Below the pieces are notes generated by a model. That model had not been told where the DNA came from, did not search any database, and was given only the letters and a program-made list of their open reading frames with translations. Positions 19,013 to 36,738 of a stretch of DNA of 64,000 nucleotides are shown here, piece by piece. A program made the position numbers and the translations under genes. How positions within the stretch are numbered: position 1 is the stretch's first letter; every line of letters starts with the position of its first letter. Source of the stretch: Arthrobacter agilis. Its GTDB lineage: Bacteria; Actinomycetota; Actinomycetes; Actinomycetales; Micrococcaceae. The stretch spans positions 1,674,001 through 1,738,000 of the forward strand of contig NZ_JAUSXO010000001.1 of assembly GCF_030816075.1 (NCBI RefSeq), given 5' to 3'.

Positions 19013-19026
19013 AGGCCTTTTGGCCC
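19013..19026. promoter_or_regulatory. DosR-like box upstream of usp
   Basis: AGGCCTTTTGGCCC matches the GGGMCYWWNGNCCC-type motif in 13 of 14 positions and is nearly palindromic. Its 3' end is 62 bases before the universal stress gene start (19089), in the divergent promoter region shared with the glycosyltransferase. Inference from similarity to the mycobacterial DosR box. Confidence 0.5.
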
Positions 19027-19088
19027 TGTCTGGTTGCACTTGCCTCCGCGACCATCGGAAGAGCACTCTCCTGCGATGGTAAGGACCA

Positions 19089-19583
19089 ATGATGAAGAAC
19101 TTTCCCGCAGCACATGAACGTGTGGTCGTCGTCGGCGTTGATGGGTCACTCTCATCAGTCACCGCACTACAGCTGGCTGCCCAGTTCGTCCCAGCAGCAG
19201 GGGATGTGATTCATGCGGTAGCAGCCTGGCACTACCCCCTCGCTTTCGGGCTGTACGCCCCCACCGGGTGGAACCCCCAGGATCAGGCCGAAGAAGTCCT
19301 CGACCGGGCTCTGGCAATTGCTTTTCACGACGAGGCACCCTGCAGAGTCGAGCGGCTGGTCCTGCAGGGGCCACCGGCCGAGATACTCATCGAGAAGAGC
19401 AAATCTGCTTCGTTGGTAGTTGTTGGTTCGCGTGGACATGGCGGTTTCGCTGGCCTCCTTCTCGGTTCGGTCAGCTCCGCTATCGCCGAACGATCAGCAT
19501 GCCCTGTCCTGATCTCCCACGGAGCGCTGCAACTCTCCCACGACGCATCGACAGTCACGCCAGCGGCGGAATCGCTAGCGTGA
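19089..19583 (+). CDS. Universal stress protein, single UspA domain
   Basis: This 164-residue protein has one Usp fold: strand VVVVGVDGSLSS at about 12-23, and the ATP-binding signature VVGSRGHGGFAGLLLGSVSSAIAERSACPVLI at about 116-147 (G-2x-G-9x-G-S type). ATP-binding Usp proteins act in stress and hypoxic persistence. It is a close paralogue of the protein at 32604-33107, sharing nearly the whole signature block. An AAGGA site precedes the two adjacent ATGs at 19089 and 19092. A DosR-like box lies upstream. It is followed by a small membrane-protein gene on the same strand. Confidence 0.93.
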   Translation: MMKNFPAAHERVVVVGVDGSLSSVTALQLAAQFVPAAGDVIHAVAAWHYPLAFGLYAPTGWNPQDQAEEVLDRALAIAFHDEAPCRVERLVLQGPPAEILIEKSKSASLVVVGSRGHGGFAGLLLGSVSSAIAERSACPVLISHGALQLSHDASTVTPAAESLA

Positions 19584-19783
19584 GGACCTGCGCGAGCCCC
19601 CGAACGCAGCCCTGCCCCTGACGGCAGCTCCCACCGGAGTGCAGGCATGATGTCTTCCGTTGCTCACCTTCCACCGCGCCGGTAGTAGCCGCATCCCGCG
19701 TGATCCACGAATATCTGGTGCAGGTTGAAGGACACCTGGCCCTGGCCCTTCGAGTATCCGGTTCGATTGAGGTAGGGAATTCA

Positions 19784-19984
19784 ATGGCCCGTCTGAAGAC
19801 AGCATCAGAGCCGGTACGCCACCCAAGGTCGGCCAGGGGGCAGGCTTTCCATGATGCCTCCGAGGACATCATCGACGATGCCGTCATTTACAAAGTTGTC
19901 TTCGGTGCCTGGGCTGTTCTTGTGCTCTACCCACTTACCCGATCAGGACTTCAGCGCATCTGGAAGTGGATTACCCGTCTTTGA
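19784..19984 (+). CDS. Small hypothetical protein with one membrane segment
   Basis: This 66-residue product has a charged N-terminal half and one hydrophobic stretch (VVFGAWAVLVLYPL, about 41-54), so it may be a single-pass membrane peptide. The ATG at 19784 follows GAGGTAGGG at a suitable distance. A longer GTG start at 19700 is possible but has no ribosome-binding site. It lies 200 bases after usp on the same strand and may share its message. I recognise no family. Confidence 0.5.
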   Translation: MARLKTASEPVRHPRSARGQAFHDASEDIIDDAVIYKVVFGAWAVLVLYPLTRSGLQRIWKWITRL

Positions 19985-20048
19985 CGAGCGACCTTGCCGG
20001 ACCTGCGTCGGCACGACATGAGAAGGTTCTGGGACCACGGTCAGTACA

Positions 20049-20730
20049 TCAGGCGGCGGAGACCGAGTTGTTCCCTTCGGTCTCAATGACGGGGTCGCCG
20101 TTCTCGTAGATGATCGTGGTCTCGTCCCCTGCGACGTCGATAGCGCTTGCTTCACCAACCTCGATGGTGTTGTTGTCTCTCCGTCGACACTCACCTCCGG
20201 GACCGAACCTGTGGTGGCGGTATTGCGGTCGCCTTCGACATCGAGCGTCTGGGTGCTGCCGCCAGTTACGGTGTTCCGGTTTCCATCGACCTCGATGTCC
20301 GCGCAGTCATCTGTGACTGTCAGTTCCACGGTGTCGGTCTCGAGGTCGATGTCTCCGCCGCTGGTGCATTCGCCAGTGGCAGGCTCGTCCGAGCGGGTGA
20401 TGCTGTGCTCGGCGCCCGCTACCAAGGACACGTTGGCTGAGCCGGCGCCGACCGAGGCCGACCCGACGAGGCGCCTCCTGCCTGCCCGGGCGCGGTCACC
20501 GACGGCGTGGCATCAGGCGAGCTCAAGGCCGGAGCGGCCGCCCCTGCCGGGTCGGATGCCGAGGGAGACTTCGCCTCGGTGGTTGTGGCTGGCGCGGACG
20601 ATGCGGTGCTGCTCTCACGGGGGGCGTTCTGTCGTCCGGACCCGAACCCGTTGAGCACCCCGCAAGGACAATGGCGGCGCCGAAGCGAACAGTCCTACAG
20701 GGGCGAGGATCTGACTCTTTGATACCTCAT
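20049..20730 (-). pseudogene. DUF3060 lipoprotein gene with several frameshifts
   Basis: The stop-side frame reads GDETTIIYENGDP and ends at 20049. The middle reads SLVAGAEHSITRSDEPATGE, then VEGDRNTATTGSVPEVSVDGE, the repeated strand pattern of DUF3060. An upstream frame holds a Ser/Pro/Ala-rich linker, and a further frame holds a lipobox, IVLAGC. The ATG at 20730 has a strong GGGAG site. The frames join only through at least three indels. One is an extra GA dinucleotide within a short GA repeat near 20176-20180, another a missing base near 20470. The intact ancestor would be a secreted lipid-anchored surface protein. Confidence 0.7.
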
Positions 20731-21178
20731 TCTCTCCCTGGCTACTTCCAAACGTATCGATGGTCCGTAACGCCACTAGACACCCGACAAGGCGTGCCAG
20801 GGTGCGCGCCTAGTCCCCGCAAAGACACCCATCAACCGGCGCTATCAACACATCGAGTGGTGGGCAAGCTGCTGCGAGAAGGTTCCGCAGTGCCTGACGC
20901 ACCCGGCATGTCCGCTCACAACCGTCGCACTGTGTAGGGCGGAAGAGGCACTCCCAATCGGTCGCGGACGCCTGGCGGGATCGCTGATGGCGCGAGCCCC
21001 TTGTCGGCGGTTTGACCAAGGACTGACCACCGCCTGCCTGGATCCACCGACATCGGTTGAAGGACCGATAGTCATTGACACATCCGGGTCGGCAGGGCAT
21101 TCCCAAGCCACGCCCCTTCTGCGTTTCCGCCTTTTCAATGCTTGAGGGGTGCTGGCTTCTCCAGGAAGTCGTGCTGGG
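20731..21178. other. Intergenic region without a supported gene
   Basis: About 450 bases between the DUF3060 remnant start and the end of the lycopene-cyclase-like gene. The short open frames overlap each other on both strands and show no domain. Nothing else was seen. Confidence 0.4.
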
Positions 21179-22315
21179 TCAGATCCAGAGCCGCGGGTGG
21201 AGGAGCAAGGTGACCGGCATGGAGCCGAGTAGGCCGCGTTCTTGCTCAAGGGTCGTTTGTTCGTCCAGGAAATCGAGGACGAGATCGGCGTCACCGGCCG
21301 CGAACGCGGCTTTCATGAAGGAGACTGCGTCCTGGGGACTGTGCTTCCACATTCTCAGGACAGGTTTGTCGTACCAATGGAAACGGCGGGACGGCCGGGG
21401 AGCGTCCGGTGATCCGGTGGAGGCAAGCGAGGCTGCGATGGATTCGGTTTGGCGAAGAATGCGGGTGAGACCGTAGCCCGTCGTGGCTTTGATGACTCCG
21501 GAAGGGGTTCCGATGTACATATGGCGACGGTGAGGGGCGGGTGGGTGGATTCCCAGGGGGATGAAACCCCGTTCGAGGGACAAGAGGGAAAACTCGGTCA
21601 CGCCCCACACCTCGCCCAGGTAGGCCGATGTCGCCTCTTCGAAGGAGAATCCCGGATCTATATGCCCGTTGGGCAGAATCCGGGTTACTTCTACGAAGGC
21701 TTCCCTGGCCGAGATCGGCAGGACGCAGTGGAAGTGCACGGGAGTTTTCTCGCCCGACCGGAAATCGATGAAGGTAGCCACCGACGGGTCGAACGATGGC
21801 TGGGGAGTGCGTATCCGTCGGATTTCGCCCGACATGAGCAATGGTGCCTTGACTCCGAGCGGGTAGAAAGTGCTGTCGAAGCAGTAGGGCGCTCGGAATG
21901 GCTGGCCATCGCTGAGTGTGACTTCTACAAAGTCCTTGTGACTGCGTACACGTGAGATGTTGGCGTCAAGGCGCGTGATGTGGCTATTGGCGTCGATGAC
22001 CTTATCGAGGCACCGAAAGACGGTTCGTGACGAGGTGAGGCACAGGCTGTGGTGCTTGAGCGGCAGGACCCGTCGGGCAGGTTCTGCGTCGACTGCGATG
22101 CTTTTGAATGTGGCTGCGGGTGCCAGAGGCAAAGGAAAATCTCCATCGTGCCAGTAGATCAGCGAACGGTGTTCATACTGGTTCCGGGCACCGTCGATGA
22201 GGAGGATCCTGGTTCCAGCCAGCTGTGGTTTCCGACTGAGGAAGTAGGCGAGGCTACGCCCTGCAATGCCTCCCCCGGCAATGATGACGTCGTACGTTTG
22301 TACTGGATCGGCCAT
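21179..22315 (-). CDS. Lycopene cyclase-like FAD/NAD-dependent protein
   Basis: This 378-residue flavoprotein of the lycopene cyclase (CrtY/CrtL) type starts with a dinucleotide-binding motif, VIIAGGGIAGRSLAYFLS (about 9-26). It continues with RSLIYWHDGDFPL and contains FIPLGIHPPAP and the late helix segment GVIKATTGYGL typical of lycopene beta-cyclases. Such enzymes cyclise the ends of lycopene at the membrane. No phytoene synthase or desaturase gene is in the window, so the carotenoid assignment is by family only. The ATG at 22315 has GGAAGGA 13 bases upstream. A weak DosR-like box lies at 22478-22491. Confidence 0.8.
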   Translation of the reverse strand: MADPVQTYDVIIAGGGIAGRSLAYFLSRKPQLAGTRILLIDGARNQYEHRSLIYWHDGDFPLPLAPAATFKSIAVDAEPARRVLPLKHHSLCLTSSRTVFRCLDKVIDANSHITRLDANISRVRSHKDFVEVTLSDGQPFRAPYCFDSTFYPLGVKAPLLMSGEIRRIRTPQPSFDPSVATFIDFRSGEKTPVHFHCVLPISAREAFVEVTRILPNGHIDPGFSFEEATSAYLGEVWGVTEFSLLSLERGFIPLGIHPPAPHRRHMYIGTPSGVIKATTGYGLTRILRQTESIAASLASTGSPDAPRPSRRFHWYDKPVLRMWKHSPQDAVSFMKAAFAAGDADLVLDFLDEQTTLEQERGLLGSMPVTLLLHPRLWI

Positions 22316-22477
22316 GAGTGATGTACGTTCCTTCCGCGTCGGGTCGTGCGGCTGCTGTCGAGAACGACAGCCGCTCGACGCATCCGTGCTGAGTGGGTCA
22401 GTGCCGGTCGTTGTGTCGGCCCCACACAACAGGCCGGAATCGTCTTCAGCCCGACGAGTCTCTTCATGAGGGACACG

Positions 22478-22491
22478 GTGGCTTCTGGCCC
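22478..22491. promoter_or_regulatory. Weak DosR-like box upstream of the cyclase gene
   Basis: GTGGCTTCTGGCCC agrees with the box motif in about 11 of 14 positions and lies about 160 bases upstream of the lycopene-cyclase-like gene. Tentative. Confidence 0.3.
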
Positions 22492-22543
22492 ACGACGTTC
22501 CTACGTATCGGGAGTTGATTTAGACGGCAGCGCCGGGCGCTGC

Positions 22544-24961
22544 TCATCCGCTTCCCTTCACGGCTTCCGCACCAAGGGATGCTGTCCACTGCCAGTTCAT
22601 GATGTCGGGCATGTCTTCTCCATGGACGCGGATGAACTGGTGGTGTTCGATGAGCTTGTTTCGGAGCTCTTCCCGTACGTGTGCCGAGGTGTTGGCGAGG
22701 CGTGGGATGTGGTCGAGGGCGTTGATGGCGAGGGTGTATCGGTCGATGCCGTTGAGCACGCACATGTCGAACGGTGTGGTGGTGGTTCCTTCCTCCCGGT
22801 ACCCGTGGACGTGGAAGTTGTCGTGATTGGTGTGTCGGTAGGTGAGGCGGTGAATGAGCCAGGGGTACCCGTGGTAGGCGAAGATGACCGGCTTATCCGT
22901 GGTGAACAGGGCGTCGAAGTCCTCTCCAGAGAGACCATGAGAGTGCTGGCTCCGGTCCTGGAGGCGCATTAGGTCAACGACGTTGATGACCCGGATCTTC
23001 AGGTCGGGGAAGCGCGTTCGCAGGATTTCGACGGCGGCGAGGGTCTCCATGGTGGGCACGTCCCCGGCGCACGCCATGACGATGTCCGGTTCAGCATCTA
23101 CGTCGGTACTGGCCCAGTCCCAGATGCTGATGCCCTTGGTGCAGTGAATGGCGGCCTGCTCCATGGTCAGGTACTGCAGTGCGGGTTGCTTACCGGCAAC
23201 GATGACGTTGACGTATTGGCGGCTGCGCAGACAGTGATCGGTGACGGAGAGCAGCGTGTTGGCATCCGCCGGAAGATAGACGCGGGTCACGTCGGCTTTT
23301 TTGACGACGTGATCAATGAATCCCGGGTCCTGGTGGGAGAGCCCGTTGTTGTCCTGCCGCCACACGTGGGAGGTCAGTAGGTAGTTCAGGGATGCGACCG
23401 GTTTCCGCCAGGGGATGGTGTTGGTGGTGGTCAGCCATTTGGCGTGCTGGTTGACCATCGAGTCGACGAGGTGGGCGAACGCTTCGTAGCAGGAGAACAG
23501 TCCGTGGCGTCCGGAGAGCAGGTAACCTTCGAGCCAGCCCTGGCAGGTGTGTTCGGAGAGGATCTCCATGACACGCCCGTCGCGAGCAAGATGGTCGTCC
23601 TCGGCGAGGGTTCGAGCGTTCCAGGTGCGGTTGGTTGCTTCCAGAATTGCGCCGAGACGGTTTGAGTTGTTCTCATCGGGGGAGAAAACACGGAAGCTGT
23701 CCATGTTGGAGGCCATCACGTCCCGCAGGAACGTGCCCAGTACCTTGGTGGATTCGACCGCGCCGGTACCCGGCGCGGCCACGGGTACCGCGTAGTTGTG
23801 GAAGTCGGGCAGCTGCAGGTCCCGAAGCAGGACGCCCCCGTTCGCGTGGGGGTTGGCGCTCATGCGCCTCTCCCCCACCGGATGCAAAGTGCGGATCGCG
23901 TCGACAGGAGCGCCGGTCGCGTCAAAAAGTTCCTCCGGGTGGTAACTGCGCGTCCACTGCTCAAGGACAGCCCGATGACCGTCGTTCTCGCGGGCACGGG
24001 TGAAAGGCACCTGGTGCGATCGCCAGCTGCCCTCGACCTTCAGGCCGTCGACTTCAGCAGGACCCGTCCATCCCTTCGGGGATCGCAGGACGATCATCGG
24101 CCACCGTGGCCTTTCCGTCACCCCGTTCTCCCGTGCCTGGCGGGTAATGTCCTGGATTGCATCGAGGCAGGCGTCGAGGACGCGGGCGAAGTCTTGGTGC
24201 ATCTGCTCCGGATCGGACCCTTCCACGTAATAGGGGGTGTGTCCGTATCCGCGCAGGAGTGCGTCGAGTTCGTCCCTGTCGATCCGGTCCAGGACGGTGG
24301 GGTTGGCGATTTTGAATCCATTGAGGTGCAGGATGGGCAGTACAGTGCCGTCCCGAGCGGGGTCGACAAACTTATTGGAGTGCCAACTCGCAGCCAGCGG
24401 GCCGGTCTCTGCCTCGCCGTCTCCGATGATGGCGGCGACGACGAGGTCCGGGTTGTCGAACGCTGCACCGTAGGCGTGCGAAAGTGCATATCCAAGCTCT
24501 CCACCTTCATGGATCGAGCCAGGGGTCTGCGGTGCAACATGGCTGGGAATGCCGCCCGGAAAGGAGAACTGGCGGAAAAGCCGCTTCATGCCGTCGTGGT
24601 CCTGAGTGATGTCGGGGTACGTTTCGCTGTAGGTGCCCTCAAGCCAGCCGGCTGCCACCGGACCTGGACCACCGTGGCCCGGGCCCATGATGTACATCAT
24701 GTTCAGATCGCGTTTCATGATGACCCGATTGAGGTGGGCGTAGATGAAGTTCAGGCCCGGCGTCGTCCCCCAGTGGCCCAGGAGCCGTGGCTTGATGTGT
24801 TCAGGGCGCAGCGGCTCGCGCAGCAGAGGGTTATCCATTAGATAGATCTGTCCGACCGAGAGATAGTTCGCTGCCCGCCACCATGCATGAATGCGCTCCA
24901 ACTCGATCGCATCAAGAACAGGTTCCGCCGCGAGATCGCGAACAGTGTTGAGAACACTCAT
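22544..24961 (-). CDS. xfp: Phosphoketolase (xylulose-5-P / fructose-6-P)
   Basis: This 805-residue thiamine-diphosphate enzyme splits xylulose-5-phosphate or fructose-6-phosphate into acetyl phosphate plus a triose or tetrose phosphate. It shows the [10 protein letters not shown] motif (about 91-100), the TDP-binding [19 protein letters not shown] block (about 180-198), and the family's C-terminal [15 protein letters not shown]. Length is normal for an Xfp. Acetyl phosphate production allows ATP formation without respiration, which fits an oxygen-limited programme. The gene is monocistronic, with a DosR-like box 75 bases upstream (25036-25049). Confidence 0.95.
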
Positions 24962-25035
24962 AAGTTTTCATCCAGTGGTCGAAGGCATAGGGCTGAGGCT
25001 AGAACCACCTTCGTTGCTGTGCCCGCCTGCAGACA

Positions 25036-25049
25036 GGGTCATTGGTCCT
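25036..25049. promoter_or_regulatory. DosR-like box upstream of phosphoketolase
   Basis: On the minus strand this reads AGGACCAATGACCC, matching the GGGMCYWWNGNCCC pattern except at the first base. It lies 75 bases upstream of the xfp start, a normal activator distance. Inference. Confidence 0.5.
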
Positions 25050-25401
25050 ACATCACCGATGTTCAGTCTGAGCTTCCTCAAGCAGAGGCTCAGCACACTA
25101 CGGAAGCAGCGCAAAGGTGACGACATCCTCGGACACGACCACGCTGAGCGGAGGATGAGGCATCTTGAAACGAACTGCCCGCGGGAACGTTCACCTGGCC
25201 GTAGCGGCCACCCACAGCCAGTGCCGGTATCCCCGCGCCCCTGAAGAGTGGTTTCACAGTGTGTTCGGGGGTCAAGGGCCGGGTTGGCCCGGGAACGAGT
25301 GAAAACGATACCTAGAGGGCGCCAGCGCGTCTGCTCAGACAACCGGGCCGTACCGGCGGAGGGCTCTGACACGTCATCAACACTTCCCACGGGTGCCTGT
25401 C

Positions 25402-25563
25402 CTCGCCGTGCGACGAAGCGGTGCGCATCGAACGTCGACCCATCGTGTTGCGATCCCTGGTGATCAGCCGCTGTAGATGAAGTCTGGTCAAAACGTTGCC
25501 CATGGTCTGCGCCTCCAGATACAGGACAGCGGCGAGATCCGAGCGACTGACCAGGTCACCTAC
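25402..25563 (-). pseudogene. Remnant of a MarR-family regulator
   Basis: The minus strand reads VGDLVSRSDLAAVLYLEAQT followed by MGNVLTRLHLQRLITRDRN, which resembles the recognition helix and start of the wing of MarR proteins (QTMGNVLTRLxxxGLITR). A stop codon lies four codons upstream and no C-terminal helix follows. Only the HTH core is left, about 54 codons. Confidence 0.5.
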
Positions 25564-25745
25564 TGACAGGGCTTAAAGCGCTGCAGCACCTACCGCGGTG
25601 ACAGCGAGGTTTTGAGCTGACGATTCTCATGATGTTCATTCAATAGTGCGCCAGCGCCCACGACAGGGCTGGTCGGCCACTGAACGGTACCCACACGCAC
25701 CCTTTCCCCACTCTGACGGTCGTGGCGTACTCCACCACCCATGTA

Positions 25746-25759
25746 GTGGCCAAAGACCC
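25746..25759. promoter_or_regulatory. DosR-like box upstream of the 25862 operon
   Basis: GTGGCCAAAGACCC matches the box pattern in 12 of 14 positions, including CC, AA, G and the CCC end. It lies 103 bases before the GTG at 25862. Inference. Confidence 0.4.
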
Positions 25760-25793
25760 TAGCGGGTCGCCGACGCGAGAGGGACCATCAAAA

Positions 25794-25829
<36 letters not shown>

Positions 25830-25861
25830 GTGCGGTACGGAGCACCAAGGAAGGATCACCT

Positions 25862-26997: not shown

Positions 26998-27021
26998 AAA
27001 GGCAGGGCGCTGACCTGCGCT

Positions 27022-28675: not shown

Positions 28676-31054
28676 ATGGGACACACAATGGTCCGGCCCG
28701 ACGCACAGGCACCGGCCAGAGCAGGACTCTCAGGGGAAGCGGCGGCACAAAGGCTCCTCGCAGGCTTCGGCAATGAGGTGTCCGACCAGTCCAGCAGGAG
28801 CTTGTGGCAGATTTTCCGTGCCAACGTCCTGACCGTTTTCAACGGGATCGTTGCCGGCAGTTTTGCTCTGCTGTTGGTGATCGGCCAGTGGCAGGACGCC
28901 CTGTTCGGCTTCGCTGCTATCGGCAACGCTGTCATCGGGGTGGTGCAGGAGTACCAGGCTAAAAGGTCGTTGGATCGACTTGCTGTCCTTGATCGTCCTA
29001 CCGCCCGCGTGCTCCGTGACGGGTTTGCGCATGAAATCGCCAGAGCGACCATTGTTCGGGACGACATTCTCGTGCTTCGCGCCGGTGATCAGCTCAGCGC
29101 TGACGCTGTTGTGCTCGACAGTGAGGGTTTACAGCTGGACGAGTCACTGCTCACCGGTGAATCGGATCCAGTCGATAAGCCCCCCGGTTCGGAGGCGCTG
29201 TCAGGCTCCAGCGTTCTCGCCGGGCAGGGACGGGCACGTGTCATTCGCGTCGGCGATGACGCGTCCCTGAGTCGCCTGACAGCAGAAGCCAAACGCTTCT
29301 CGCTCGTCAATTCCGAGATCCGCAGCAGCCTCAACAAGATTCTGCAGTGGATCACGTGGATGTTGCTGCCCGTGATGTTGCTGGTCATCAATGGGCAGAT
29401 GCAAGCCAACGGTGGTTGGTCACAGGCGATCACCACAGGGGCCTGGCGAACAGGGGCTATTGGAGCGGTCGCCAGCATCGTCGCGATGATCCCTCTGGGC
29501 TTGGTGCTGCTGACCAGCGTCGCGTTCGCCGTCGGCGGAGTGAGGCTGGCGCGGGAGAAGGTCCTCATTCAGGAGCTTGCCTCCGTCGAGGGCCTCGCGC
29601 GAGTCGATGTCCTCTGCCTCGACAAGACCGGCACCCTTACCGAGGGCCGTATCGTGTTCGAGGCCGTCCACGAAGTCAGCTCCGACCATGTACGGGGGTG
29701 GGAACAAGCACTGGGCTGGTTCGGGGCCGACCCTAACGCCAACGCGACCGCACGATGCCTGAGCGAACAGTACGCTTCCGGCCAGAGCCTCTCCCCCATC
29801 TCGACTGTGGCCTTCTCCTCAGCAAGAAAATGGAGTGCGGTCAGCTTCGACGTCGAGCATGGCGGCGAGGAAACCTGGGTGCTCGGTGCACCGGAACTGG
29901 TCCTGACCTCTGATACGCCGCGGACGAATTCAACGCTGGAGAAGGCTGCAGCCCTGGCATCAACGGGTTCACGGACCCTCATCCTGGCTCACGCCTCCGG
30001 CGCTCTACGAAGTGATCCCCCCCATGATGCTCAGCTACCACTAACCCCAGTGCCCGTAGTCCTCCTGACCTTCCGGGAAAAAACACGATCGGACGCGGGG
30101 CGAACCCTCGCCTATTTTCTCGAGCAGGGCGTGAGCCTAAGGATCATTTCAGGCGACGATCCGCACACGGTCGCCGCCGTCGCGCGCGACGTCGGACTGG
30201 ATATCGACAAGGGCTTCGACGCCCGTAGCCTTCCGGATGATCAGGAACTACTCGCCGAAGTGATGGAGGAACACACCGTCTTCGGACGGGTTACGCCGAC
30301 ACAGAAGAAGGAAATGATCCGCGCTCTGCAAAGCCGCGGCCATACAGTAGCGATGACCGGGGACGGGGTGAACGACGTCCTGGCCTTGAAGGAGGCGGAC
30401 ATCGGTATCGCCATGGGTTCAGCGGCGGCCGCCACGAAGGCCGTATCCCGCCTCGTACTTCTTGACGGCCAGTTCGCACGTCTGCCGGGCGTGGTGGCAG
30501 AAGGCCGGCGGGTCATCGCGAATATCGAACGCGTCTCCATGCTGTTTCTGACCAAGACGACCTACGCCATCGTCATCTCCGTCGTCTTCGGTTCGCTCCT
30601 GTGGGCCTTTCCGTTCCTTCCTCGGCAACTATCCGTCACCGACGGCCTGACCATCGGGATCCCCGCATTCTTCCTCGCCCTGATGCCCAATACGCGCCGC
30701 TACACACCCGGCTTCCTCCGACGTTCCCTGACTTTCGCTATACCTGCCGGCATGACTGTTGCAGCAACTGTCATCGCGCTGAACATCTATGCCACAGTCA
30801 GCGGCGCCTTCGATCCCCAGGCCGTTCGGACCGCATCTGTCATCGTGCTCACACTGGTGGGCCTATGGATCCTCGTGGTCACGTCGCGACCCCTGAATGC
30901 CCAGCGAGTCGCTGTCGTTCTAGCGATGTGTGCAGGTCTCGCGGCCGTACTCATCGTCCCCGTCGTCCGCGACTTCCTCGACCTGTCATGGCCCCCCACA
31001 CGCCCTGCTCACGATGAGCCTGGCCACCGCGATGGTCGGCGCCGCAGCGATTGA
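28676..31054 (+). CDS. CtpE-like P-type cation-translocating ATPase
   Basis: This 792-residue membrane pump has the actuator motif LLTGES (about 158-163), the phosphorylation motif DKTGTLT (D316), and the hinge motif MTGDGVNDVLALKEADIGIAMG in the C-terminal half. About eight to ten hydrophobic segments are present, including a C-terminal block of helices. The helix-4 motif reads MIPLGLVLLTS, as in the CtpE-like group, rather than the CPC of copper pumps or the PEGL of classical calcium pumps. That favours a divalent cation such as Ca2+, but ion specificity is inferred. A DosR-regulated P-type ATPase (CtpF) is known in mycobacteria. Only a half-box is seen upstream here. Confidence 0.9.
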   Translation: MGHTMVRPDAQAPARAGLSGEAAAQRLLAGFGNEVSDQSSRSLWQIFRANVLTVFNGIVAGSFALLLVIGQWQDALFGFAAIGNAVIGVVQEYQAKRSLDRLAVLDRPTARVLRDGFAHEIARATIVRDDILVLRAGDQLSADAVVLDSEGLQLDESLLTGESDPVDKPPGSEALSGSSVLAGQGRARVIRVGDDASLSRLTAEAKRFSLVNSEIRSSLNKILQWITWMLLPVMLLVINGQMQANGGWSQAITTGAWRTGAIGAVASIVAMIPLGLVLLTSVAFAVGGVRLAREKVLIQELASVEGLARVDVLCLDKTGTLTEGRIVFEAVHEVSSDHVRGWEQALGWFGADPNANATARCLSEQYASGQSLSPISTVAFSSARKWSAVSFDVEHGGEETWVLGAPELVLTSDTPRTNSTLEKAAALASTGSRTLILAHASGALRSDPPHDAQLPLTPVPVVLLTFREKTRSDAGRTLAYFLEQGVSLRIISGDDPHTVAAVARDVGLDIDKGFDARSLPDDQELLAEVMEEHTVFGRVTPTQKKEMIRALQSRGHTVAMTGDGVNDVLALKEADIGIAMGSAAAATKAVSRLVLLDGQFARLPGVVAEGRRVIANIERVSMLFLTKTTYAIVISVVFGSLLWAFPFLPRQLSVTDGLTIGIPAFFLALMPNTRRYTPGFLRRSLTFAIPAGMTVAATVIALNIYATVSGAFDPQAVRTASVIVLTLVGLWILVVTSRPLNAQRVAVVLAMCAGLAAVLIVPVVRDFLDLSWPPTRPAHDEPGHRDGRRRSD

Positions 31055-31764
31055 GATCATCGCCCAGATACACGCGCGACACCACGCACGACACCACGCA
31101 CGGCATCGGGCTGCGAGGCGACGGCTTCGCCCATGAAGACAGTTCCAGTAAGCGAACGGCTTGGTCAGTGTCGTGCCGAGCCGTTCCCCGAGGTCAGCAC
31201 CAATCTGGCGTTGAAGGGACGAAAGGTGTCAGCTGGGACGTCAAGGGTGCAGGAGCGCCACCTGACGTAGGGAGCATGAGCGTGCGACGTGGAAGATCCA
31301 CGCCGGCGATAGACATGCTGCCGGCCGACAACGGCGTCCAGTGCTCGCAGGCATGAGAAGTGCCACACCACGTAAGAGACGGCGCTATCGGGGCATAGCG
31401 ACGATCAAGGACACCAACGAACTCCTCGACGATTCCTGGCGCATACGGCGCATCCGCAACGACGATCACGTCCCCGGTCAAACCGTTTCAGGCATGGTGC
31501 CGGGAGTGTGTGCCACACGTCCCTGCAACACGCACGAGGTCACTTCTCCCGGATTCTCGTGCCCGCTCCGACGGCCGCCGGTCCGGAACCCGAGCGTGGT
31601 CTGCCGCAGAGTCTTCCCGTGCCCTCCGGAAACGGTGTGAGAGCTGCGCCTGCTGGACGCCGTTCAGGCATCGTCCATTTGATGACGGGTGAGCGCTGCC
31701 AGTGATGCGCTGTTCAGCGCGTGCCCTTCTTGAAGGCTGAGATTCTGGTTCGGGGTGTTGTGGC
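31055..31764. other. Intergenic region with short repeat and no supported gene
   Basis: About 710 bases between the ATPase stop and the end of the tandem usp gene. A minus-strand frame (31194-31481) begins MTGDVIVVADAPYAPGIVEE, which is strand-helix-like, but then loses coherence. The remaining frames are short. A tandem 12-bp repeat lies at 31077-31100. Some of this may be decayed coding DNA. Confidence 0.4.
31077..31100. repeat. Two tandem copies of a 12-bp unit
   Basis: CGACACCACGCA occurs twice head-to-tail shortly after the P-type ATPase stop. Significance unknown. Confidence 0.6.
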
Positions 31765-32607
31765 TCAGCGGACGACGAGGACGCTCCCTTGGGCGTGGTG
31801 CAGCACGGCGTGGACCGTGGATCCGAGGCGGGCGCCGAGAGTGTTGTTGCCCTTCGCTCCGAGCACCACGATCATGGCCCCGCGCGTGTGGTGGACGATG
31901 ACGCCGGGTACCGAGTGTTCGGCGAACGAATCCTCGATGACGGTCAGGTCCGTGTCGCCCGGCAGGAGATTCAAGGCCTGCTGGATGACGGGGTCGCTTT
32001 CGAGGTCGGCGAGTCGGGCGGCGACATGCCGGCTGTAGGGCCTGACGTGCAGGATGCGCAGCTGGGCGTGCAGGGTGGTCGCCAGCGATGCTGCCGCGAT
32101 GACGGCGCGGTCGCTCTCGGGGGATCCGTCGACCGCCACCAGGACGTCGCCGTTGGCGGGCTGATCATCACGGATGACCGCGATGGGGCACGACGCGGCG
32201 GCGGCGAGATGGAGGCTGACCGATCCGATGAGCAGGCCCGCAAAACCTCCGAGCCCGCGCGTGCCGGTGACAAGCAGAGAGGCTTCCACCGAGAGCCTGG
32301 TGAGCACTTCCGAAGGGAAGCCGACGATGAGCCGTTCGCTCGTGTCGACGTCGGGCTCGGCCTGTCGAGCGAGGCCGAGGCCTTCAGCGGCGATCCGCTG
32401 CGCTGCGCTCCGAAGGCCGCTGTCCTTCACGGTTGGAACCGGGCCGAGGTCCTGCGTGAAGAACGGCCAGACCCAGCAGTGCACGACGACGAGGCCCAAA
32501 CCTGTGGCCGCCGCGTGGTGGGCTGCCCACTGCACGGCGAGCCGGGAGCCATCGGAGCCGTCGTAGCCGACGATCACTGGTTTGGCGGGGACACCGGGAG
32601 GGTTCAT
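31765..32607 (-). CDS. Universal stress protein with two Usp domains
   Basis: This 280-residue tandem UspA protein has domain 1 at about 8-148 (VIVGYDGSDGS ... LLVTGTRGLGGFAGLLIGSVSLHLAAAASCPIAVI) and domain 2 at about 152-280 (VLVAVDGSPES ... VVLGAKGNNTLGARLGSTVHAVLHHAQGSVLVV). Both ATP-binding signatures are present, the second somewhat divergent. The start overlaps the stop of the upstream single-domain usp (ATGA), so the two are one operon. Double-domain Usp proteins are characteristic of mycobacterial DosR regulons. The operon is read from the promoter region that holds the paired DosR-like boxes at 33173-33224. Confidence 0.93.
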   Translation of the reverse strand: MNPPGVPAKPVIVGYDGSDGSRLAVQWAAHHAAATGLGLVVVHCWVWPFFTQDLGPVPTVKDSGLRSAAQRIAAEGLGLARQAEPDVDTSERLIVGFPSEVLTRLSVEASLLVTGTRGLGGFAGLLIGSVSLHLAAAASCPIAVIRDDQPANGDVLVAVDGSPESDRAVIAAASLATTLHAQLRILHVRPYSRHVAARLADLESDPVIQQALNLLPGDTDLTVIEDSFAEHSVPGVIVHHTRGAMIVVLGAKGNNTLGARLGSTVHAVLHHAQGSVLVVR

Positions 32608-33107
32608 GCCGGTATCCGGACGGGCGGCAGGGCGGTGGTCTCACCCTCGGCGAGGTGGAGCGCGCCGTGGGCGACGAGGACCGGGCATTGCGCCCGCTCT
32701 GCCAGTGCGGAACTGACGGACCCCAGGAGTAGTCCTGCGAACCCGCCATGACCGCGGGAACCGACGACGACCATCGCGGCATGCCTGCTCTCCTGGATGA
32801 GGACCTCCACGGCGAGGCCGCGCACCACTCTGCGCTCAATGTCCGCAGCCTGGCGAGGAGCCCCCGGGGGGAACGCCTCGGTCACCGCCTGATCCAGGGC
32901 CTCGCGAGCGAGTCCCTCGTAGTCGTGCTCCACGGGCGGTGAGTAACGGCCGAAGGCAATGGGGTGCTGCCATACCGCGAGGGCGTGGATGGTGTCACCG
33001 GCCAGCGGCATGAGGTTGACGGCGAGTTGCAGAGCAGCGATCGACGACGGGGAACCATCAACTCCCACAACGATGACGCGTCGGCGGGGGGTAGAGGGTG
33101 CGTCCAT
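32604..33107 (-). CDS. Universal stress protein, single domain
   Basis: This 167-residue UspA protein has VIVVGVDGSPSSIAALQLA at about 11-29 and the ATP-binding signature VVVGSRGHGGFAGLLLGSVSSALAERAQCPVLV at about 116-148. It is a close paralogue of the protein at 19089-19583, including the unusual GDTIHALAVWQHPIAFG segment. It is the first gene of a two-gene operon with the tandem Usp and is divergent from the DosR-like regulator, about 220 bases apart. Confidence 0.93.
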   Translation of the reverse strand: MDAPSTPRRRVIVVGVDGSPSSIAALQLAVNLMPLAGDTIHALAVWQHPIAFGRYSPPVEHDYEGLAREALDQAVTEAFPPGAPRQAADIERRVVRGLAVEVLIQESRHAAMVVVGSRGHGGFAGLLLGSVSSALAERAQCPVLVAHGALHLAEGETTALPPVRIPA

Positions 33108-33172
33108 GAGGAGTCCTTTTCTGGGCGGAACACGACTTCTTCCGATCGTCGCCGGTCCCGCAATAAGCAGGT

Positions 33173-33224
33173 AGGGCCTTACGTCCCCTCCTCAGTCCAT
33201 AGTGGTAAGGGGACGTAAGGCCCT
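33173..33224. promoter_or_regulatory. Inverted pair of DosR-like boxes between usp and dosR
   Basis: Two 17-base arms (33173-33189 and 33208-33224) are exact reverse complements separated by 18 bases. Each arm contains a box, GGGCCTTACGTCCC (33174-33187) and its complement (33210-33223), which differs from the mycobacterial core GGGACTTTAGTCCC at three positions. The site lies 66 bases from the usp start and 106 bases from the regulator start, as expected for divergent activation and autoregulation. As a single structure it could also form a long hairpin, but no gene ends here. Confidence 0.65.
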
Positions 33225-33330
33225 GTCAGGGAAGGCCGGGCGGGATCATGCTGATGCTTGGTGTCGACAGGCGTCAGGTCTGAAAAAACTAAGGCAGATA
33301 TGGGATGCGAGTAACGACGGTGATCAGCAG

Positions 33331-33981
33331 ATGAAGGACGTCACGGTGTTCCTCCTCGACGACCACGAACTGGTCAGGCGAGGATTACGAGAACTGCTGG
33401 AGGCCCAGGGGTGCGTGATCGTCGGGGAATCCGACTCCGCCGAGGAAGCAACGCGCCGAATCCCTGCCCTGTCACCTGACATCTCGATCCTCGACGCGAG
33501 GTTGCCGGACGGGACGGGAATCGAGGTGTGCCGTGATGTGCGCTCGATCGACCCGTCCCTGTCGTGTGTCATCCTGACCAGCTACGACGACGACCAGGCG
33601 GTGCGGGGCGCCGTCCTGGCCGGGGCCTCCGGATACATCCTGAAGGAGATCATCGGCTCCGATCTGGTCGGCAAGGCACGCAGGGCCGCCGCGGGTGAGT
33701 CTCTGTTCGAGCCAGGGTTGAAGGAGCGCATCATCGCCGGACTGCGCGACGCCCCACAGGAGGACGTGCGCCTGGCCGGCCTGACAGCGCAGGAGAAAAA
33801 GGTCCTCACACTGATCGGAGGCGGACTGACGAACCGGCAGATCGGCGCCGAACTGTTCCTGGCCGAGAAAACCGTCAAGAACTACGTCTCCGCGCTCCTG
33901 GCGAAGCTCGGCTTCCAGCGCCGCACCCAGGCCGCCGTCTACATTTCCCGGCCCTCAGAACCACCGGCCCCTACGCGCTAG
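33331..33981 (+). CDS. DosR/DevR-like NarL-family response regulator
   Basis: This 216-residue regulator has a receiver domain (about 4-120) with acidic pocket D10-D11, phospho-acceptor D55 in ISILDARLPDGTGIEVCRD, and K in ASGYILKEI. A LuxR/NarL-type HTH follows (about 148-208; LTAQEKKVLTLIGGGLTNRQIGAELFLAEKTVKNYVSALLAKLGFQRRTQAAV). The receiver and HTH signatures are very close to mycobacterial DosR as I remember it, particularly LPDG.GIE.CRD and FLAEKTVKNYVS.LLAKLG..RRTQAAV. Its probable partner is the kinase on the opposite strand, whose 3' end overlaps by 11 bases. Probably autoregulated through 33173-33224. Confidence 0.92.
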   Translation: MKDVTVFLLDDHELVRRGLRELLEAQGCVIVGESDSAEEATRRIPALSPDISILDARLPDGTGIEVCRDVRSIDPSLSCVILTSYDDDQAVRGAVLAGASGYILKEIIGSDLVGKARRAAAGESLFEPGLKERIIAGLRDAPQEDVRLAGLTAQEKKVLTLIGGGLTNRQIGAELFLAEKTVKNYVSALLAKLGFQRRTQAAVYISRPSEPPAPTR

Positions 33982-35752
33982 GAGCAAGTAGAGGTAAAAC
34001 GGTTGGCGAGGATGTTAGAGGCACCGTGACCAGGACATCCGTTCCCCTGCCCGGGGGACTGGAGATCGTGAGGGTGCCTCCGCAGAGCTCGGCGCGACGC
34101 CGCATATTCGCCAGCCCGCTGCGCGACGGTGTCTGTTCAAACCCTGACCCGTCGTCGGTGATCCGCAGCTCTAGGCGGTCCGGCAGTGCCTGCAGCGTCG
34201 TCGTGATGGACCGCGCGCCGGCATGGCGGAGCGCATTGGACAAACCCTCGAGGAGGATCGCCCGCACGTGATCAGCCCACGCCGGATCGATGGTGGCGTC
34301 GAGGGGTCCGGCGAGGTGCAGGACAGGTTGAAGGTCGTGACCGTCGAAGACTCTCGCAACGAGGGTGAAGATACTGGACGTGAATGTCTGGGTGCTCTGA
34401 GGGATGGAGCGCAGCGAGTAGATGGTGTCGCGCAGTTCCCTGATCGTCGCGTCCAGTTCGACGGTGACGGCCTCGATCCGTTCAAGAGCCTCGGCATCCG
34501 GCAGGTATTTGTGCAAACTTTGGATGCTCAGGCCCGCCGCGAAGAGTCGTTGGATCACCAGGTCGTGGAGGTCGCGGGCGATCCGGTCGCGATCGCCGAA
34601 GACCGCTTCCTGCTCCCGCTGCCGGTGGACCCGCAGTAGCTCCAGAGACAGGGCCACGTGGGAGGTGAACGAGGTCACCATCTCATGATCGACGTCCGAG
34701 AAGGGCGGGAATTCCGCAGGTCTGCCGAAGAGGAGGAACTGCCGTTCCCCGGTCCCCGCGAGGCGTGTGAGGAGGGCTGTGGAGATCGTTGCCGGTGGCG
34801 CTCCTGGAAGGAGCTGGTTGATGTCCTCCTCCGTCAGCAGGAGCGGCGGCGATTGTGCTGTCAGTCCGTCGAGTTGTACGTTGTCAGCCCCTGATTGTCC
34901 GATGAAAGCTCCGGCATTGACGCCGTCCGCGGCTTCGCAGATCAGGCCCCGCTGCTGGCCGAAGTCACGCAGCACGACAGTGAGGTCGCTGCGTGATGCG
35001 TGCAGGGCGTGGTGTGCGATTAGTTCGAGGTCATTGCGGGCATCATCGGGTTGCTCGAGGAGCTCATGTGCGGCGTTCAGGCCGCCTTCGAGCCACTGCG
35101 TTCGTCGGGTCGAGTCGTGGAAGAGGCGCGAATTCTCGATGGCGACGCCGGCCGCGGCCGCAAGGGCGATGAGCAGCTTCTCATCGGTGTCGGTAAAGTC
35201 TTCCTCCCCATTTTTTTCCGTGAGGTAAAGGTTCCCAAAAACCGTCCCGTGGATCCGGATCGGGACACCCAGGAATGAACCCATCTGCGGATGACGCTCC
35301 GGGAACCCCGTGGCGCGATCGTGATGGCGCAGGTCCTGAAGCCGTAACGGCCGGGGTTCGCTGACAAGAAGACCCAGCACGCCGTGCCCCTGAGGCGGGG
35401 ACCCGATCCGTTTGATGTGATCATCCTGAAGTCCCACCGTAATGAACTGACCCAGTGTCCCGTTCGGGCCGATAACGCCCAGCGCACCGTAGTGTGCGTC
35501 AACCAGCTGACAAGCGGCCGAGATGACGCGTTCGAGGACGGTATCCAGATCGATATCATCGGCCATGGACTCGAAAGCTGCGAGGAGGTTTCCGATTCCC
35601 GCCGCTGAGGTGGCAGTAATGGTCTGATCGTGCGGGGTCACCGATTCGTGCTGGGATCCTGTTACCACTGAACGCTCCCGAGTGCCGTGGTTGAACTTCC
35701 ATGAAGTTCCTGAGGTAATCGATTCACCCGGTCGTTCGGATGACGCTGGCAC
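33971..35752 (-). CDS. DosS/DevS-like GAF-GAF sensor histidine kinase
   Basis: This 593-residue cytosolic kinase has GAF-A at about 65-215, GAF-B at about 230-370, and HisKA_3 with phospho-acceptor H396 in DRIARDLHD. An HATPase_c domain follows at about 470-585 (ITDDGSGFEQ, SGLANMRRRAELCGG). GAF-A reads GFPERHPQMGSFLGVPIRI; the His (H154) matches, from memory of the family, the proximal heme ligand of DosS/DosT (GFP..HPPM.TFLGVPVR). A heme-based redox, O2 or NO sensor is therefore likely. No membrane segment is seen. It is convergent with and overlaps its regulator gene by 11 bases and is divergent from the oxidase gene at 35826, with a DosR-like box between. Confidence 0.9.
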   Translation of the reverse strand: MPASSERPGESITSGTSWKFNHGTRERSVVTGSQHESVTPHDQTITATSAAGIGNLLAAFESMADDIDLDTVLERVISAACQLVDAHYGALGVIGPNGTLGQFITVGLQDDHIKRIGSPPQGHGVLGLLVSEPRPLRLQDLRHHDRATGFPERHPQMGSFLGVPIRIHGTVFGNLYLTEKNGEEDFTDTDEKLLIALAAAAGVAIENSRLFHDSTRRTQWLEGGLNAAHELLEQPDDARNDLELIAHHALHASRSDLTVVLRDFGQQRGLICEAADGVNAGAFIGQSGADNVQLDGLTAQSPPLLLTEEDINQLLPGAPPATISTALLTRLAGTGERQFLLFGRPAEFPPFSDVDHEMVTSFTSHVALSLELLRVHRQREQEAVFGDRDRIARDLHDLVIQRLFAAGLSIQSLHKYLPDAEALERIEAVTVELDATIRELRDTIYSLRSIPQSTQTFTSSIFTLVARVFDGHDLQPVLHLAGPLDATIDPAWADHVRAILLEGLSNALRHAGARSITTTLQALPDRLELRITDDGSGFEQTPSRSGLANMRRRAELCGGTLTISSPPGRGTDVLVTVPLTSSPTVLPLLAPSA

Positions 35753-35776
35753 GTACGCTTGCTGAAGCGCCGTAAC

Positions 35777-35790
35777 AGGACCTAGTGCCC
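35777..35790. promoter_or_regulatory. DosR-like box between dosS-like kinase and oxidase gene
   Basis: AGGACCTAGTGCCC matches the motif in 12 of 14 positions. It lies 25 bases from the kinase start and 35 bases from the pyridoxamine-oxidase-like start, so it could serve either gene. Inference. Confidence 0.45.
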
Positions 35791-35825
35791 TAGCCGGTGG
35801 AGCAGCAGCTTCATAGTGTCACGGT

Positions 35826-36284
35826 ATGAACGCTGAGCCCACACCTACGAGGATCCTTCCAGCACATGAATGCTGGGCGCTCCTGCGTGCGACGTCCGTC
35901 GGGCGTCTTGCCCTCTGCAAGGACGGGCGGCCCGAGATCTTCCCCATCAACTTCACCGTCGATCACGGGACAGTCGTCTACAGGACATCCGAAGGCACAA
36001 AATCCCTTGCCGCCGAACACGCCCCTGCCGCGCTCGAAGCGGATGGCTCGTACACAGACGATGGCACAGGCCAGGAGGTGGTGTGGAGTGTTGTCGTGAA
36101 AGGAGACGCAGCGACTATCGCGGTGACCTCCGAGCTTCTGGCCACAGTGCAACTGCCCCTTCATCCGTGGGAAAGCGGTCGTAAAGACCGGTTCATGCGC
36201 CTGGTTCCCGGGTCCATCAGCGGACGGGCCTTCCCCCGCAGTGGCTCGAACAACCCCGTCAACCAGGAAGCGTCAGCCACGTAG
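35826..36284 (+). CDS. Pyridoxamine 5'-phosphate oxidase family protein
   Basis: This 152-residue split-barrel flavin-binding protein of the PNPOx-like type shows CWALLRATSVGRLALCKDGRPEIFPINFTVDHG at about 18-50, VYRTSEGTKS at about 51-60, and WSVVVKGDA at about 87-95. These single-domain proteins bind FMN or F420 and are typical members of actinobacterial DosR regulons. Exact activity unknown. It has a paralogue at 36739-37242. It is transcribed divergently from the DosS-like kinase with a DosR-like box between them. Confidence 0.88.
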   Translation: MNAEPTPTRILPAHECWALLRATSVGRLALCKDGRPEIFPINFTVDHGTVVYRTSEGTKSLAAEHAPAALEADGSYTDDGTGQEVVWSVVVKGDAATIAVTSELLATVQLPLHPWESGRKDRFMRLVPGSISGRAFPRSGSNNPVNQEASAT

Positions 36285-36738
36285 CCTTCGGTCATCCATC
36301 CCGGCGAGGAACCATCCACTGACGAGCACCTGACATCCTGCAAAGGCGCATTGCAGCAACAAACCAGACCCCGCCCACACAGCCCCTGCAGCATCCGTCC
36401 TGTCCTCCGTCGGGTCAGAGCAGCGGCTGTGGCCCCTCGATGATTCCGGCAAGCGCGCTGAGGGTACAAGTCACTGCGACCTCATTCCGGCGACACCCGA
36501 ACTGATGACCGTCCCCGCACAGTGCACGCCCGCCACCAGCAGCAAATAAAAGTGCCTTATCAGGGCCTTTGGGCCCTGATAAGGCACTTCCTCGTTCCGT
36601 AGCCTGAAAATCAGGAGATCACCAGGCGTTGACGCCAGTCCATGACGAGCTGCGACGCCTGCTCCCGCCCAAGCTGTCGCGGGCACTTTTGGTGTGCTGG
36701 TGATCGGTCTCCGTATCAAACGGGAAGAAGACAACACC
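36285..36738. other. Intergenic region containing a 40-bp palindrome
   Basis: About 450 bases between the two oxidase-fold genes. No supported gene. The main structure is the inverted repeat at 36550-36589. Confidence 0.5.
36550..36589. promoter_or_regulatory. 40-bp palindrome centred on a DosR-like box
   Basis: Two perfect 18-base arms (36550-36567 and 36572-36589) are separated by TTTG. The centre is GGGCCTTTGGGCCC (36563-36576), the best DosR-like match of the window in symmetry. It lies 150 bases upstream of the oxidase gene at 36739 and 265 bases after the previous stop. It could be an extended operator or a strong hairpin. There is no T tract on either side, which argues against a standard terminator. 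Confidence 0.6.

What the first reader, a model, noticed from the sequence alone, without database searches (positions are those of the whole stretch)
19013..36589. A DosR-type dormancy regulon, with sensor, regulator and targets, in an Arthrobacter-like genome
A DosR-like response regulator (33331-33981) and a DosS-like GAF-GAF kinase (33971-35752) sit inside a cluster of families known from mycobacterial DosR regulons. These are three Usp proteins (one double-domain), a nitroreductase, two oxidase-fold flavoproteins and a P-type ATPase, plus an F420/NADP reductase-like protein and a phosphoketolase. A recurring 14-bp motif of the form RGGMCYWWNGNCCC lies upstream of several of them: 19013, 25036, 25746, 27731, 33174, 33210, 35777 and 36563, with weaker copies at 12410 and 22478. 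Sensor, regulator, targets and candidate sites are in one 25-kb block, unlike the scattered mycobacterial regulon. The motif was collected by eye without statistics.
Basis: partly seen in the sequence, partly recalled or inferred. Interest (0 to 1): 0.85.

Follow-up and report, generated by a model that had tools for sequence, protein, structure and literature searches.

The report
Island-borne dormancy regulon in Arthrobacter
A soil bacterium related to Arthrobacter agilis carries, on a 37-kb inserted stretch of DNA, a set of genes that looks like the oxygen-sensing dormancy switch of the tuberculosis bacillus and of Streptomyces, and its genome holds two more copies of that switch.

Summary
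The core observation holds. The window encodes a DosR/DevR-type regulator (54% identical to M. tuberculosis DevR) and a DosT-like haem-GAF kinase, with DosR-type operators upstream of Usp and pyridoxamine-oxidase-fold (PNPOx) genes. A published DosR box, not derived from this window, gives 4 sites in the island against 2 in 400 kb of background; a matrix from other species' regulator promoters gives 5 against 1 at 15 bits or more.

Corrections: the block lies on a 37-kb island (9767-46818) missing at this place in the relatives examined. The genome holds two more regulator-kinase pairs and three satellite sites, so the regulon is not one block. Clustering is known from Streptomyces.

New: regulator and kinase genes are tail-to-tail, often overlapping, in 11 Micrococcaceae genera examined, unlike the Streptomyces operon. 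PNPOx-1 looks leaderless. An unnamed small-protein family (27178-27507) occurs in this genus only in DosR-positive genomes and usually has a DosR site. P-type ATPase, phosphoketolase and nitroreductase are poorly supported as direct targets. Hypoxia response is untested.

The parts
9767..46818 (.). genomic island (about 37.05 kb) carrying the Dos block; G+C 0.634 against 0.705 in the flanks
   Evidence: In six relatives' loci the flank homologies are 6, 63, 103, 111, 143 and 334 bp apart, in a seventh 4.3 kb; lower GC3 and G+C inside
33331..33981 (+). DosR/DevR-type response regulator (216 aa; D55, K180, K183, N184 correspond to DevR D54, K179, K182, N183)
   Evidence: Pfam; best PDB match M. 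tuberculosis DevR 3c3w, E 1.6e-62; 54% identity over 209 aligned residues; residue positions
33971..35668 (-). DosT/DosS-type sensor kinase, convergent with the regulator and overlapping it by 11 bp (ORF open up to 35752)
   Evidence: GAF matches DosT 2vzw, E 5.7e-44; haem-ligand His, distal Tyr, and Gly at the DosS E87 position; overlap
33173..33188 (.). DosR-type operator, -158 of the regulator and -81 of Usp 32604-33107
   Evidence: 17.7 bits; site pairs in orthologous promoters
33209..33224 (.). DosR-type operator, -122 of the regulator and -117 of Usp 32604-33107
   Evidence: 17.7 bits; site pairs in orthologous promoters
35776..35791 (+). weak operator at -50 of PNPOx-1, centre -42.5 from the start codon
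   Evidence: 6.75 bits, but same position as sites in orthologues, followed by TAGTGT at -12
35826..36284 (+). Pyridox_ox_2 protein (PNPOx-1), predicted leaderless target
   Evidence: Pfam; promoter
36562..36577 (+). operator upstream (-132) of PNPOx-2, inside a 40-bp palindrome (36550-36589)
   Evidence: 19.35 bits; palindrome
36694..37242 (+). Pyridox_ox_2 protein (PNPOx-2), target
   Evidence: Pfam
32604..33107 (-). universal stress protein, target
   Evidence: Pfam; sites at -81 and -117
31765..32607 (-). double-domain universal stress protein, probably co-transcribed with 32604-33107
   Evidence: Pfam; overlapping same-strand ORFs
19012..19027 (.). operator between a glycosyltransferase gene (17369-18832, -) and Usp 19089-19583 (+), -77 of the Usp
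   Evidence: 16.1 bits
19089..19583 (+). universal stress protein, target
   Evidence: Pfam
   Evidence: 12.3 bits; same 16-mer upstream of homologues in G002, G004 and G007
27178..27507 (-). 109-aa protein of an unnamed family, candidate DosR target
   Evidence: no Pfam or NCBIfam match; in 19 of 26 DosR-positive and 0 of 12 DosR-negative genus genomes; site of 10 bits or more in 18 of 25 homologues, the two own copies included
27781..28533 (+). NADPH-dependent F420 reductase-like protein (start uncertain, 27721 or later), possible divergent target of 27605
   Evidence: Pfam; NCBIfam npdG below its cut-off
25745..25760 (.). moderate operator-like site, gene it would serve unclear
   Evidence: 10.8 bits
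25035..25050 (-). borderline operator-like site upstream of the phosphoketolase
   Evidence: 8.4 bits
22544..24961 (-). phosphoketolase, uncertain target
   Evidence: NCBIfam NF003619; borderline site only
28676..31054 (+). P-type ATPase, neighbour; direct control not supported
   Evidence: Pfam; no site here (best 3.8 bits), 0 of 8 homologues with a site within 300 bp
11958..11973 (.). high-scoring operator-like site inside the nitroreductase ORF
   Evidence: 18.1 bits; intragenic, meaning unknown
11695..12291 (-). nitroreductase, uncertain target
   Evidence: Pfam; no upstream site (best 3.9 bits)

Best explanation
This is a DosR-type oxygen-responsive dormancy or stress module, sited on a genomic island of an Arthrobacter close to A. 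agilis. The GAF domain of the kinase binds haem and reads O2 (and probably NO or CO) in the manner of DosT. When O2 is lost, the kinase phosphorylates the regulator on D55. The phosphorylated regulator binds AGGGCC-WW-GGCCCT-type operators and activates Usp genes, the two pyridoxamine-oxidase-fold genes, the 109-aa unnamed gene and its own gene. At the PNPOx-1 promoter it would act as a class-II activator at -42.5 on a leaderless transcript. Shown by sequence: protein families, conserved key residues, operators and their conserved positions, island insertion. Inferred: haem binding, gas sensing, phosphotransfer, activation, and cross-talk with the two paralogous pairs.
For: The regulator's best solved relative is M. 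tuberculosis DevR (54% identity), with D54, K179, K182 and N183 equivalents. The kinase GAF is closest to DosT (52%) and DosS (46%); the haem His and distal Tyr are in 24 of 24 aligned relatives and invariant in the window kinase and its two paralogues. The published DosR box gives 4 sites in the island against 2 in 400 kb; a matrix from other species gives 5 against 1 at 15 bits or more. In 31 relatives' loci, sites of 10 bits or more lie within 300 bp upstream of 28 of 46 Usp, 19 of 27 PNPOx and 6 of 7 109-aa genes, against 18 of 262 other genes of the same loci. Genome-wide, 14 places match AGGGNCNWWNGNCCCN: 9 on the island or within about 6.3 kb of the other two pairs, 3 upstream of Usp or PNPOx genes elsewhere, 2 not examined. 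Of the 7 relatives' PNPOx-1 genes printed with the site at exactly -50, 6 have TAGTGT or TAGCGT shortly before the ATG, as do the second own block and the window gene.
Against: No expression, haem or binding data exist here. Genome-wide the strict pattern gives 18 strand-matches against 11 for its reversed control, so the excess lies in where the sites are rather than in their number. Regulator promoters of seven more distant genus members (L060, L062-L065, L067, L068) show no site of 7.5 or more with the Streptomyces matrix, though L065's has 10.4 bits with the genus matrix (L167). One top site (11958) lies inside a gene, and another (36562) lies in a 40-bp palindrome that might be a hairpin. 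The genus matrix includes two sites identical in sequence to 33173 and 33209, from orthologous promoters.
Confidence: 0.86

Rival explanations
1. A NarL-family pair controls these genes through this operator, but the signal is not O2 (for example redox, quinone or another stress).
For: No expression data; whether DosS is a gas or a redox sensor is debated (PMC4082495, passages).
Against: Haem His and distal Tyr in 24 of 24 aligned relatives, and Gly at the E87 position as in DosT in 22 of 24; Usp, nitroreductase and PNPOx genes belong to the OsdR set (PMC5069765, sections 7 and 12).
Confidence: 0.1
2. The sites are DosR-type, but the window's own pair is not their main controller; one of the two other pairs in the genome is, and the island merely brought further targets.
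For: Three regulators with identical recognition helices; sites at the three blocks have the same form.
Against: The window pair has open reading frames and its own tandem operators.
Confidence: 0.2
3. The palindromes are GC-rich repeats, hairpins or chance in a 66% G+C window, and the gene families came together by chance in a variable region.
For: 36562 lies in a 40-bp palindrome; at low cut-offs the Streptomyces matrix shows no excess; the strict pattern is only mildly commoner genome-wide than its reversed control.
Against: Fixed distances to start codons across genera; excess over 400 kb of the same genome; excess over other genes of the same loci.
Confidence: 0.02

Closest known systems
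OsdR-OsdK cluster of Streptomyces coelicolor (SCO0167-SCO0219 region; PMC5069765, abstract, sections 6, 7, 12 and passages seen)
   Same: DevR-type regulator and DosS/DosT-type kinase in a cluster with Usp, nitroreductase, PNPOx and dehydrogenase genes and palindromic AGGGCC..GGCCCT operators; a matrix from the 25 distinct sites of its Table 1 scores four window sites at 14 bits or more
   Different: osdR-osdK is an operon, here the genes are convergent; S. coelicolor has nitrate reductase Nar2 in the cluster; here three paralogous pairs, an island location and the 109-aa family
DevR/DosR-DosS-DosT regulon of Mycobacterium tuberculosis (PMC4082495 and PMC3029386, passages seen)
   Same: Regulator family and key residues; haem-GAF sensor; Usp targets; start-proximal site over the -35 element
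   Different: There one regulator with two sensors, with devR and devS in one operon (Rv3134c-devRS, cited title); here three regulator-kinase pairs with convergent genes, DosT-like Gly in all three sensors, and mostly C rather than A at position 5 of the operator (74%)
DosR boxes of Rhodococcus equi (PMC2947987, passages and a table caption seen)
   Same: The box NNNGGGHCNWWNGNCCCBNN given there fits four window sites
   Different: The passages seen only say that homologues of the regulon are present and point to a table that I did not see; no island or convergent pair is mentioned in them

Membership tests
DosR/DevR response regulators | NarL-type receiver + LuxR HTH with phospho-acceptor Asp54 | tested here: met
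   Pfam; D55, aligned to DevR
DosR/DevR response regulators | DNA-contact residues K179, K182, N183 (their role recalled; the 13 residues of PMC5069765 were not all tested) | tested here: met
   KTVKNYV starts at 180 in the window, 179 in DevR
DosR/DevR response regulators | closest solved relative is DevR, not NarL or VraR | tested here: met
   E 1.6e-62 against 5.4e-33 for VraR and 1.7e-28 for NarL
DosS/DosT sensor kinases | GAF-A with proximal haem His149 and distal Tyr171 | tested here: met
   window H126 and Y148
DosS/DosT sensor kinases | second GAF domain (GAF-B; recalled) | tested here: inconclusive
   one GAF stretch found by Pfam; structure prediction failed
DosS/DosT sensor kinases | binds haem and changes autokinase activity with O2, NO or CO | not testable with these tools
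   needs protein
DosR regulon | DosR box upstream of regulator and of stress targets | tested here: met
DosR regulon | targets induced by hypoxia through the regulator | not testable with these tools
   no expression data
OsdRK-type clusters | regulator and kinase genes in one operon | tested here: not met
   convergent and overlapping by 11 bp

The most novel reading that the evidence does not exclude
In Micrococcaceae the Dos system is a mobile, amplifiable module: a tail-to-tail regulator-kinase unit that travels in islands, accumulates in several copies per genome, and whose copies converge on one shared operator set, so that several O2 sensors feed one dormancy regulon. The 109-aa family is a new dormancy-protein family of that regulon.
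Probability: 0.4. Interest if true: 0.65.

Novelty: new variant of a known kind. Interest (0 to 1): 0.52.

Why it matters
It extends the DosR dormancy circuit, studied mainly in mycobacteria and Streptomyces, to soil bacteria of the family Micrococcaceae, with predicted operators, a predicted leaderless class-II promoter and an unnamed target family that can be tested directly. Three parallel pairs in one genome give a natural case for asking whether several oxygen sensors share one regulon. Gly at the DosS E87 position in 22 of 24 aligned relatives (Ala in the other two, Glu in none) suggests that the DosT-like state is the common one and M. tuberculosis DosS the exception.

Tried and rejected

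Controls and their limits. The first background set (L033-L043, 161 kb) was biased, because those stretches had been chosen for sites or Usp genes; 20 systematic stretches replaced it. The Poisson value printed is wrong because each site was counted twice; one search corrects it. The upstream test uses a simple codon-based gene caller that missed some island genes (for example Usp 19089 and PNPOx-1) and skips genes that follow closely on the same strand. In one search, 31 loci were used; L073 (near copy of L074), L143 (same genome region as L072), L085 and the short loci L044-L071 were left out. The family search scored at most 10 candidates a genome, so copy numbers there are lower bounds, and its weaker copies may be other NarL-type regulators. 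Of six other Usp-bearing regions of the genome that I fetched, three have such a site, L040's Usp has none of 9 bits or more, and L042 and L043 gave no match to the island's Usp queries and were not assessed.

Literature: searches for DosR with Arthrobacter, Micrococcus luteus, DevR/DosR with Micrococcaceae, Kocuria and Micrococcales (15 of 258 papers listed), DosR with genomic island or convergent and DosR with Rhodococcus (8 of 67 listed) listed no paper that by title or start of abstract describes this system in Micrococcaceae. Only the held open-access library was searched.
Full report
Where it lies. The window is bases 1674001-1738000 of a 3.857-Mb single-contig genome. The kinase's nearest named relatives in the genome collection are in Arthrobacter agilis, A. 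echini, A. bussei and A. subterraneus; that of A. agilis UMCV2 is 85% identical.

The island. GC3 of the called genes is 0.90-0.97 on both sides and 0.68-0.89 between about 9.9 and 46.7 kb; G+C is 0.634 inside against 0.705 outside. The gene to the left (7582-9705) and a gene to the right (48792-50171) are present in 37 of 38 genus genomes. In the own genome 39.1 kb lie between them. Among the 33 other genomes that have both on one contig, 32 have 1.0-12.6 kb (17 of them 2.5 kb or less) and one, G032, has 53.8 kb. In six fetched relatives (L135-L139, L148) the flank homologies are 6-334 bp apart, in a seventh (L147) 4.3 kb; L136 leaves 6 bp between window 9766 and 46819. So about 9767-46818 (37,052 bp) is extra here. 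Of the G032 insert, only about 1.2 kb matched the island by blastn, so this is a variable spot. No integrase or transposase was among the 30 island ORFs scanned against Pfam.

Regulator and kinase. The regulator is a receiver + LuxR-HTH protein whose best solved relative is M. tuberculosis DevR, 54% identical over 209 aligned residues. D54 and the recognition-helix residues K179, K182 and N183 have counterparts (that these are DNA contacts is recalled). The kinase GAF domain is closest to DosT (52%) and DosS (46%). His149 and Tyr171, the haem ligand and the distal residue of DosS (PMC4082495, passages), are matched in 24 of 24 aligned relatives. Position 87 is Gly in 22 and Ala in 2; DosT has Gly, M. 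tuberculosis DosS has Glu. The window kinase and both paralogues have Gly there. The review notes that the role of Glu87 in oxygen stability is disputed.

Three pairs. The genome has three close regulators: the window copy, one at 1484053 (82%) and one at 20420 (78%); the next best is 38%. Each has a kinase gene that converges on it and overlaps it (11, 35 and 35 bp), and Usp genes beside it. A midpoint-rooted tree puts the window copy with A. agilis UMCV2, A. echini and others (100/99) and the other two in a different clade (97/94), all inside an Arthrobacter group (100/100). The regulators' first helix and the kinases' dimerisation helix are nearly identical in the three, and the DNA recognition helix is identical, which suggests but does not show cross-talk.

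Distribution and gene order. 26 of 38 genus genomes have a regulator at E 1e-55 or better; two have three (one of G004's is partial), two have two. In the family, 109 of 295 genomes and 14 of 32 genera match at 1e-50, up to six per genome. Of 31 genus regulator loci (own three included; 31 of the 32 matches), 26 have the kinase convergent, 20 of them with overlapping ends, and 5 show no kinase within 1.5 kb. Of 20 further loci, 14 are convergent (13 from 10 other genera; one, L168, repeats the genus locus L069), 2 are same-strand (L161, L162) and 4 show no kinase. Among named loci, L072-L079 are convergent; A. ulcerisalmonis, Mycobacterium OTB74, an Acidobacteria MAG and an Actinomycetes MAG are same-strand; two MAG loci with partial kinase matches read as divergent. 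S. coelicolor osdRK is an operon (PMC5069765, section 6). So the tail-to-tail order is common in Micrococcaceae, though not universal there.

Operators. Three matrices or boxes not taken from this window were used. The published box (PMC2947987, table caption seen) gives 11959, 33174, 33210 and 36563 in the window and 2 sites in 400 kb of systematic background. A matrix from 27 regulator-upstream sites of other genomes (sites picked with the Streptomyces matrix, so not de novo, and two identical in sequence to the window's orthologous sites) gives 5 sites of 15 bits or more in the island, 0 in the flanks, 1 in 400 kb. The Streptomyces matrix gives 4 of 14 bits or more against 2, but no excess at a cut-off of 8. 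Genome-wide, AGGGNCNWWNGNCCCN has 14 distinct places: 9 on the island or near the other two pairs (17812, 21174, 1483863, 1483891, 1492612, 1685958, 1707173, 1707210, 1710562), 3 upstream of PNPOx or Usp genes elsewhere (1303221, 1352070, 1372251) and 2 whose context I did not examine (107318, 2133785) (contexts). The reversed control pattern had 11 strand-matches against 18, so the number alone is no strong evidence; the placement is.

Conserved positions. In 31 relatives' loci a site of 10 bits or more lies within 300 bp upstream of 28 of 46 Usp, 21 of 32 regulator, 12 of 27 kinase, 19 of 27 PNPOx, 4 of 10 ADH, 1 of 2 glycosyltransferase and 6 of 7 109-aa genes, and of 0 of 8 P-type ATPase, 0 of 3 BON, 0 of 2 GAF-ANTAR, 0 of 2 of the 135-aa gene at 37478-37885, and 0 of 1 each of phosphoketolase, DUF1003 and GH3 genes; other genes of the same loci 18 of 262. 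Regulator genes, and Usp genes that share their promoters, are not independent of the matrix. Of the 19 PNPOx sites, 7 lie exactly at -50. Of the 7 PNPOx-1 genes with the site at exactly -50 printed, 6 carry TAGTGT or TAGCGT shortly before the ATG; the window gene and the second own block carry TAGTGT at -12. With the operator centred at -42.5 from the A of ATG, this reads as a leaderless promoter with the operator over the -35 region, the overlap described for DevR promoters (PMC3029386, passages).

A new target family. The 109-aa protein at 27178-27507 has no Pfam or NCBIfam match. Homologues (E 1e-6) occur in 19 of 38 genus genomes, all 19 among the 26 with a regulator and none among the 12 without (Fisher p 1.9e-5; shared ancestry not corrected). 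18 of 25 homologues, the two own copies included, have a site of 10 bits or more within 250 bp, 16 of the 18 at 64-113 bp upstream. In G002 the gene lies about 350 kb from the nearer of that genome's two regulators. Three of the 25 (L186-L188) are weak homologues of 34-37% identity.

What remains weak. Phosphoketolase, P-type ATPase and nitroreductase share the island but have borderline, no, or only intragenic sites. Phosphoketolase and P-type ATPase homologues do recur beside Dos-type kinases in A. ulcerisalmonis (L080) and Klenkia terrae (L085), so the linkage may be functional even without a direct site. Nothing here shows a response to oxygen or NO.

Verdict. A real DosR-type regulon and a new variant of a known kind: island-borne, tail-to-tail and multiplied, with a new candidate target family. 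It is not a single self-contained block, and clustering as such is known from Streptomyces.

Noticed in passing
27178-27507: 109-aa protein family without Pfam or NCBIfam match; among 38 genus genomes it occurs only in DosR-positive ones and usually has a DosR-type site upstream.
   Followed up: yes
36550-36589: The operator upstream of PNPOx-2 is the core of a 40-bp palindrome (18-bp perfect arms, 4-bp loop); long palindromes also surround the PNPOx-2 sites of L072 and L146, a shorter one that of L144.
   Followed up: partly
11958-11973: A very strong operator-like site (18.1 bits) lies inside the nitroreductase reading frame.
   Followed up: no
10036-10806: An MmyB-like regulator is present only as two separate pieces; it looks broken.
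   Followed up: no
15065-17342: A GH3 glycosidase appears to run over two frames; it looks broken.
   Followed up: no
38041-38232: Fragment identical in 31 of 32 aligned residues to the MFS transporter at 45311-46720, pointing to a duplication or rearrangement inside the island.
   Followed up: no
40492-45061: DhaR-like regulator, amidohydrolase, Fe-S assembly (DUF59) protein and Zn-alcohol dehydrogenase in a row; as I recall, such genes accompany propane or acetone monooxygenase operons, but no monooxygenase was found among the scanned ORFs.
   Followed up: no
G032 (L140-L142): A relative carries a largely different insertion (53.8 kb between the flank genes) at the same chromosomal spot.
   Followed up: partly
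L065-L068, L071: Five genus regulators have no kinase detected within 1.5 kb and may be solitary.
   Followed up: no
own genome near 1303221 and 1372251 (L039, L041): Two similar satellite loci, each with a PNPOx-2-like gene 65-66 bp from an identical operator, a Usp gene and GAF-ANTAR genes.
   Followed up: partly
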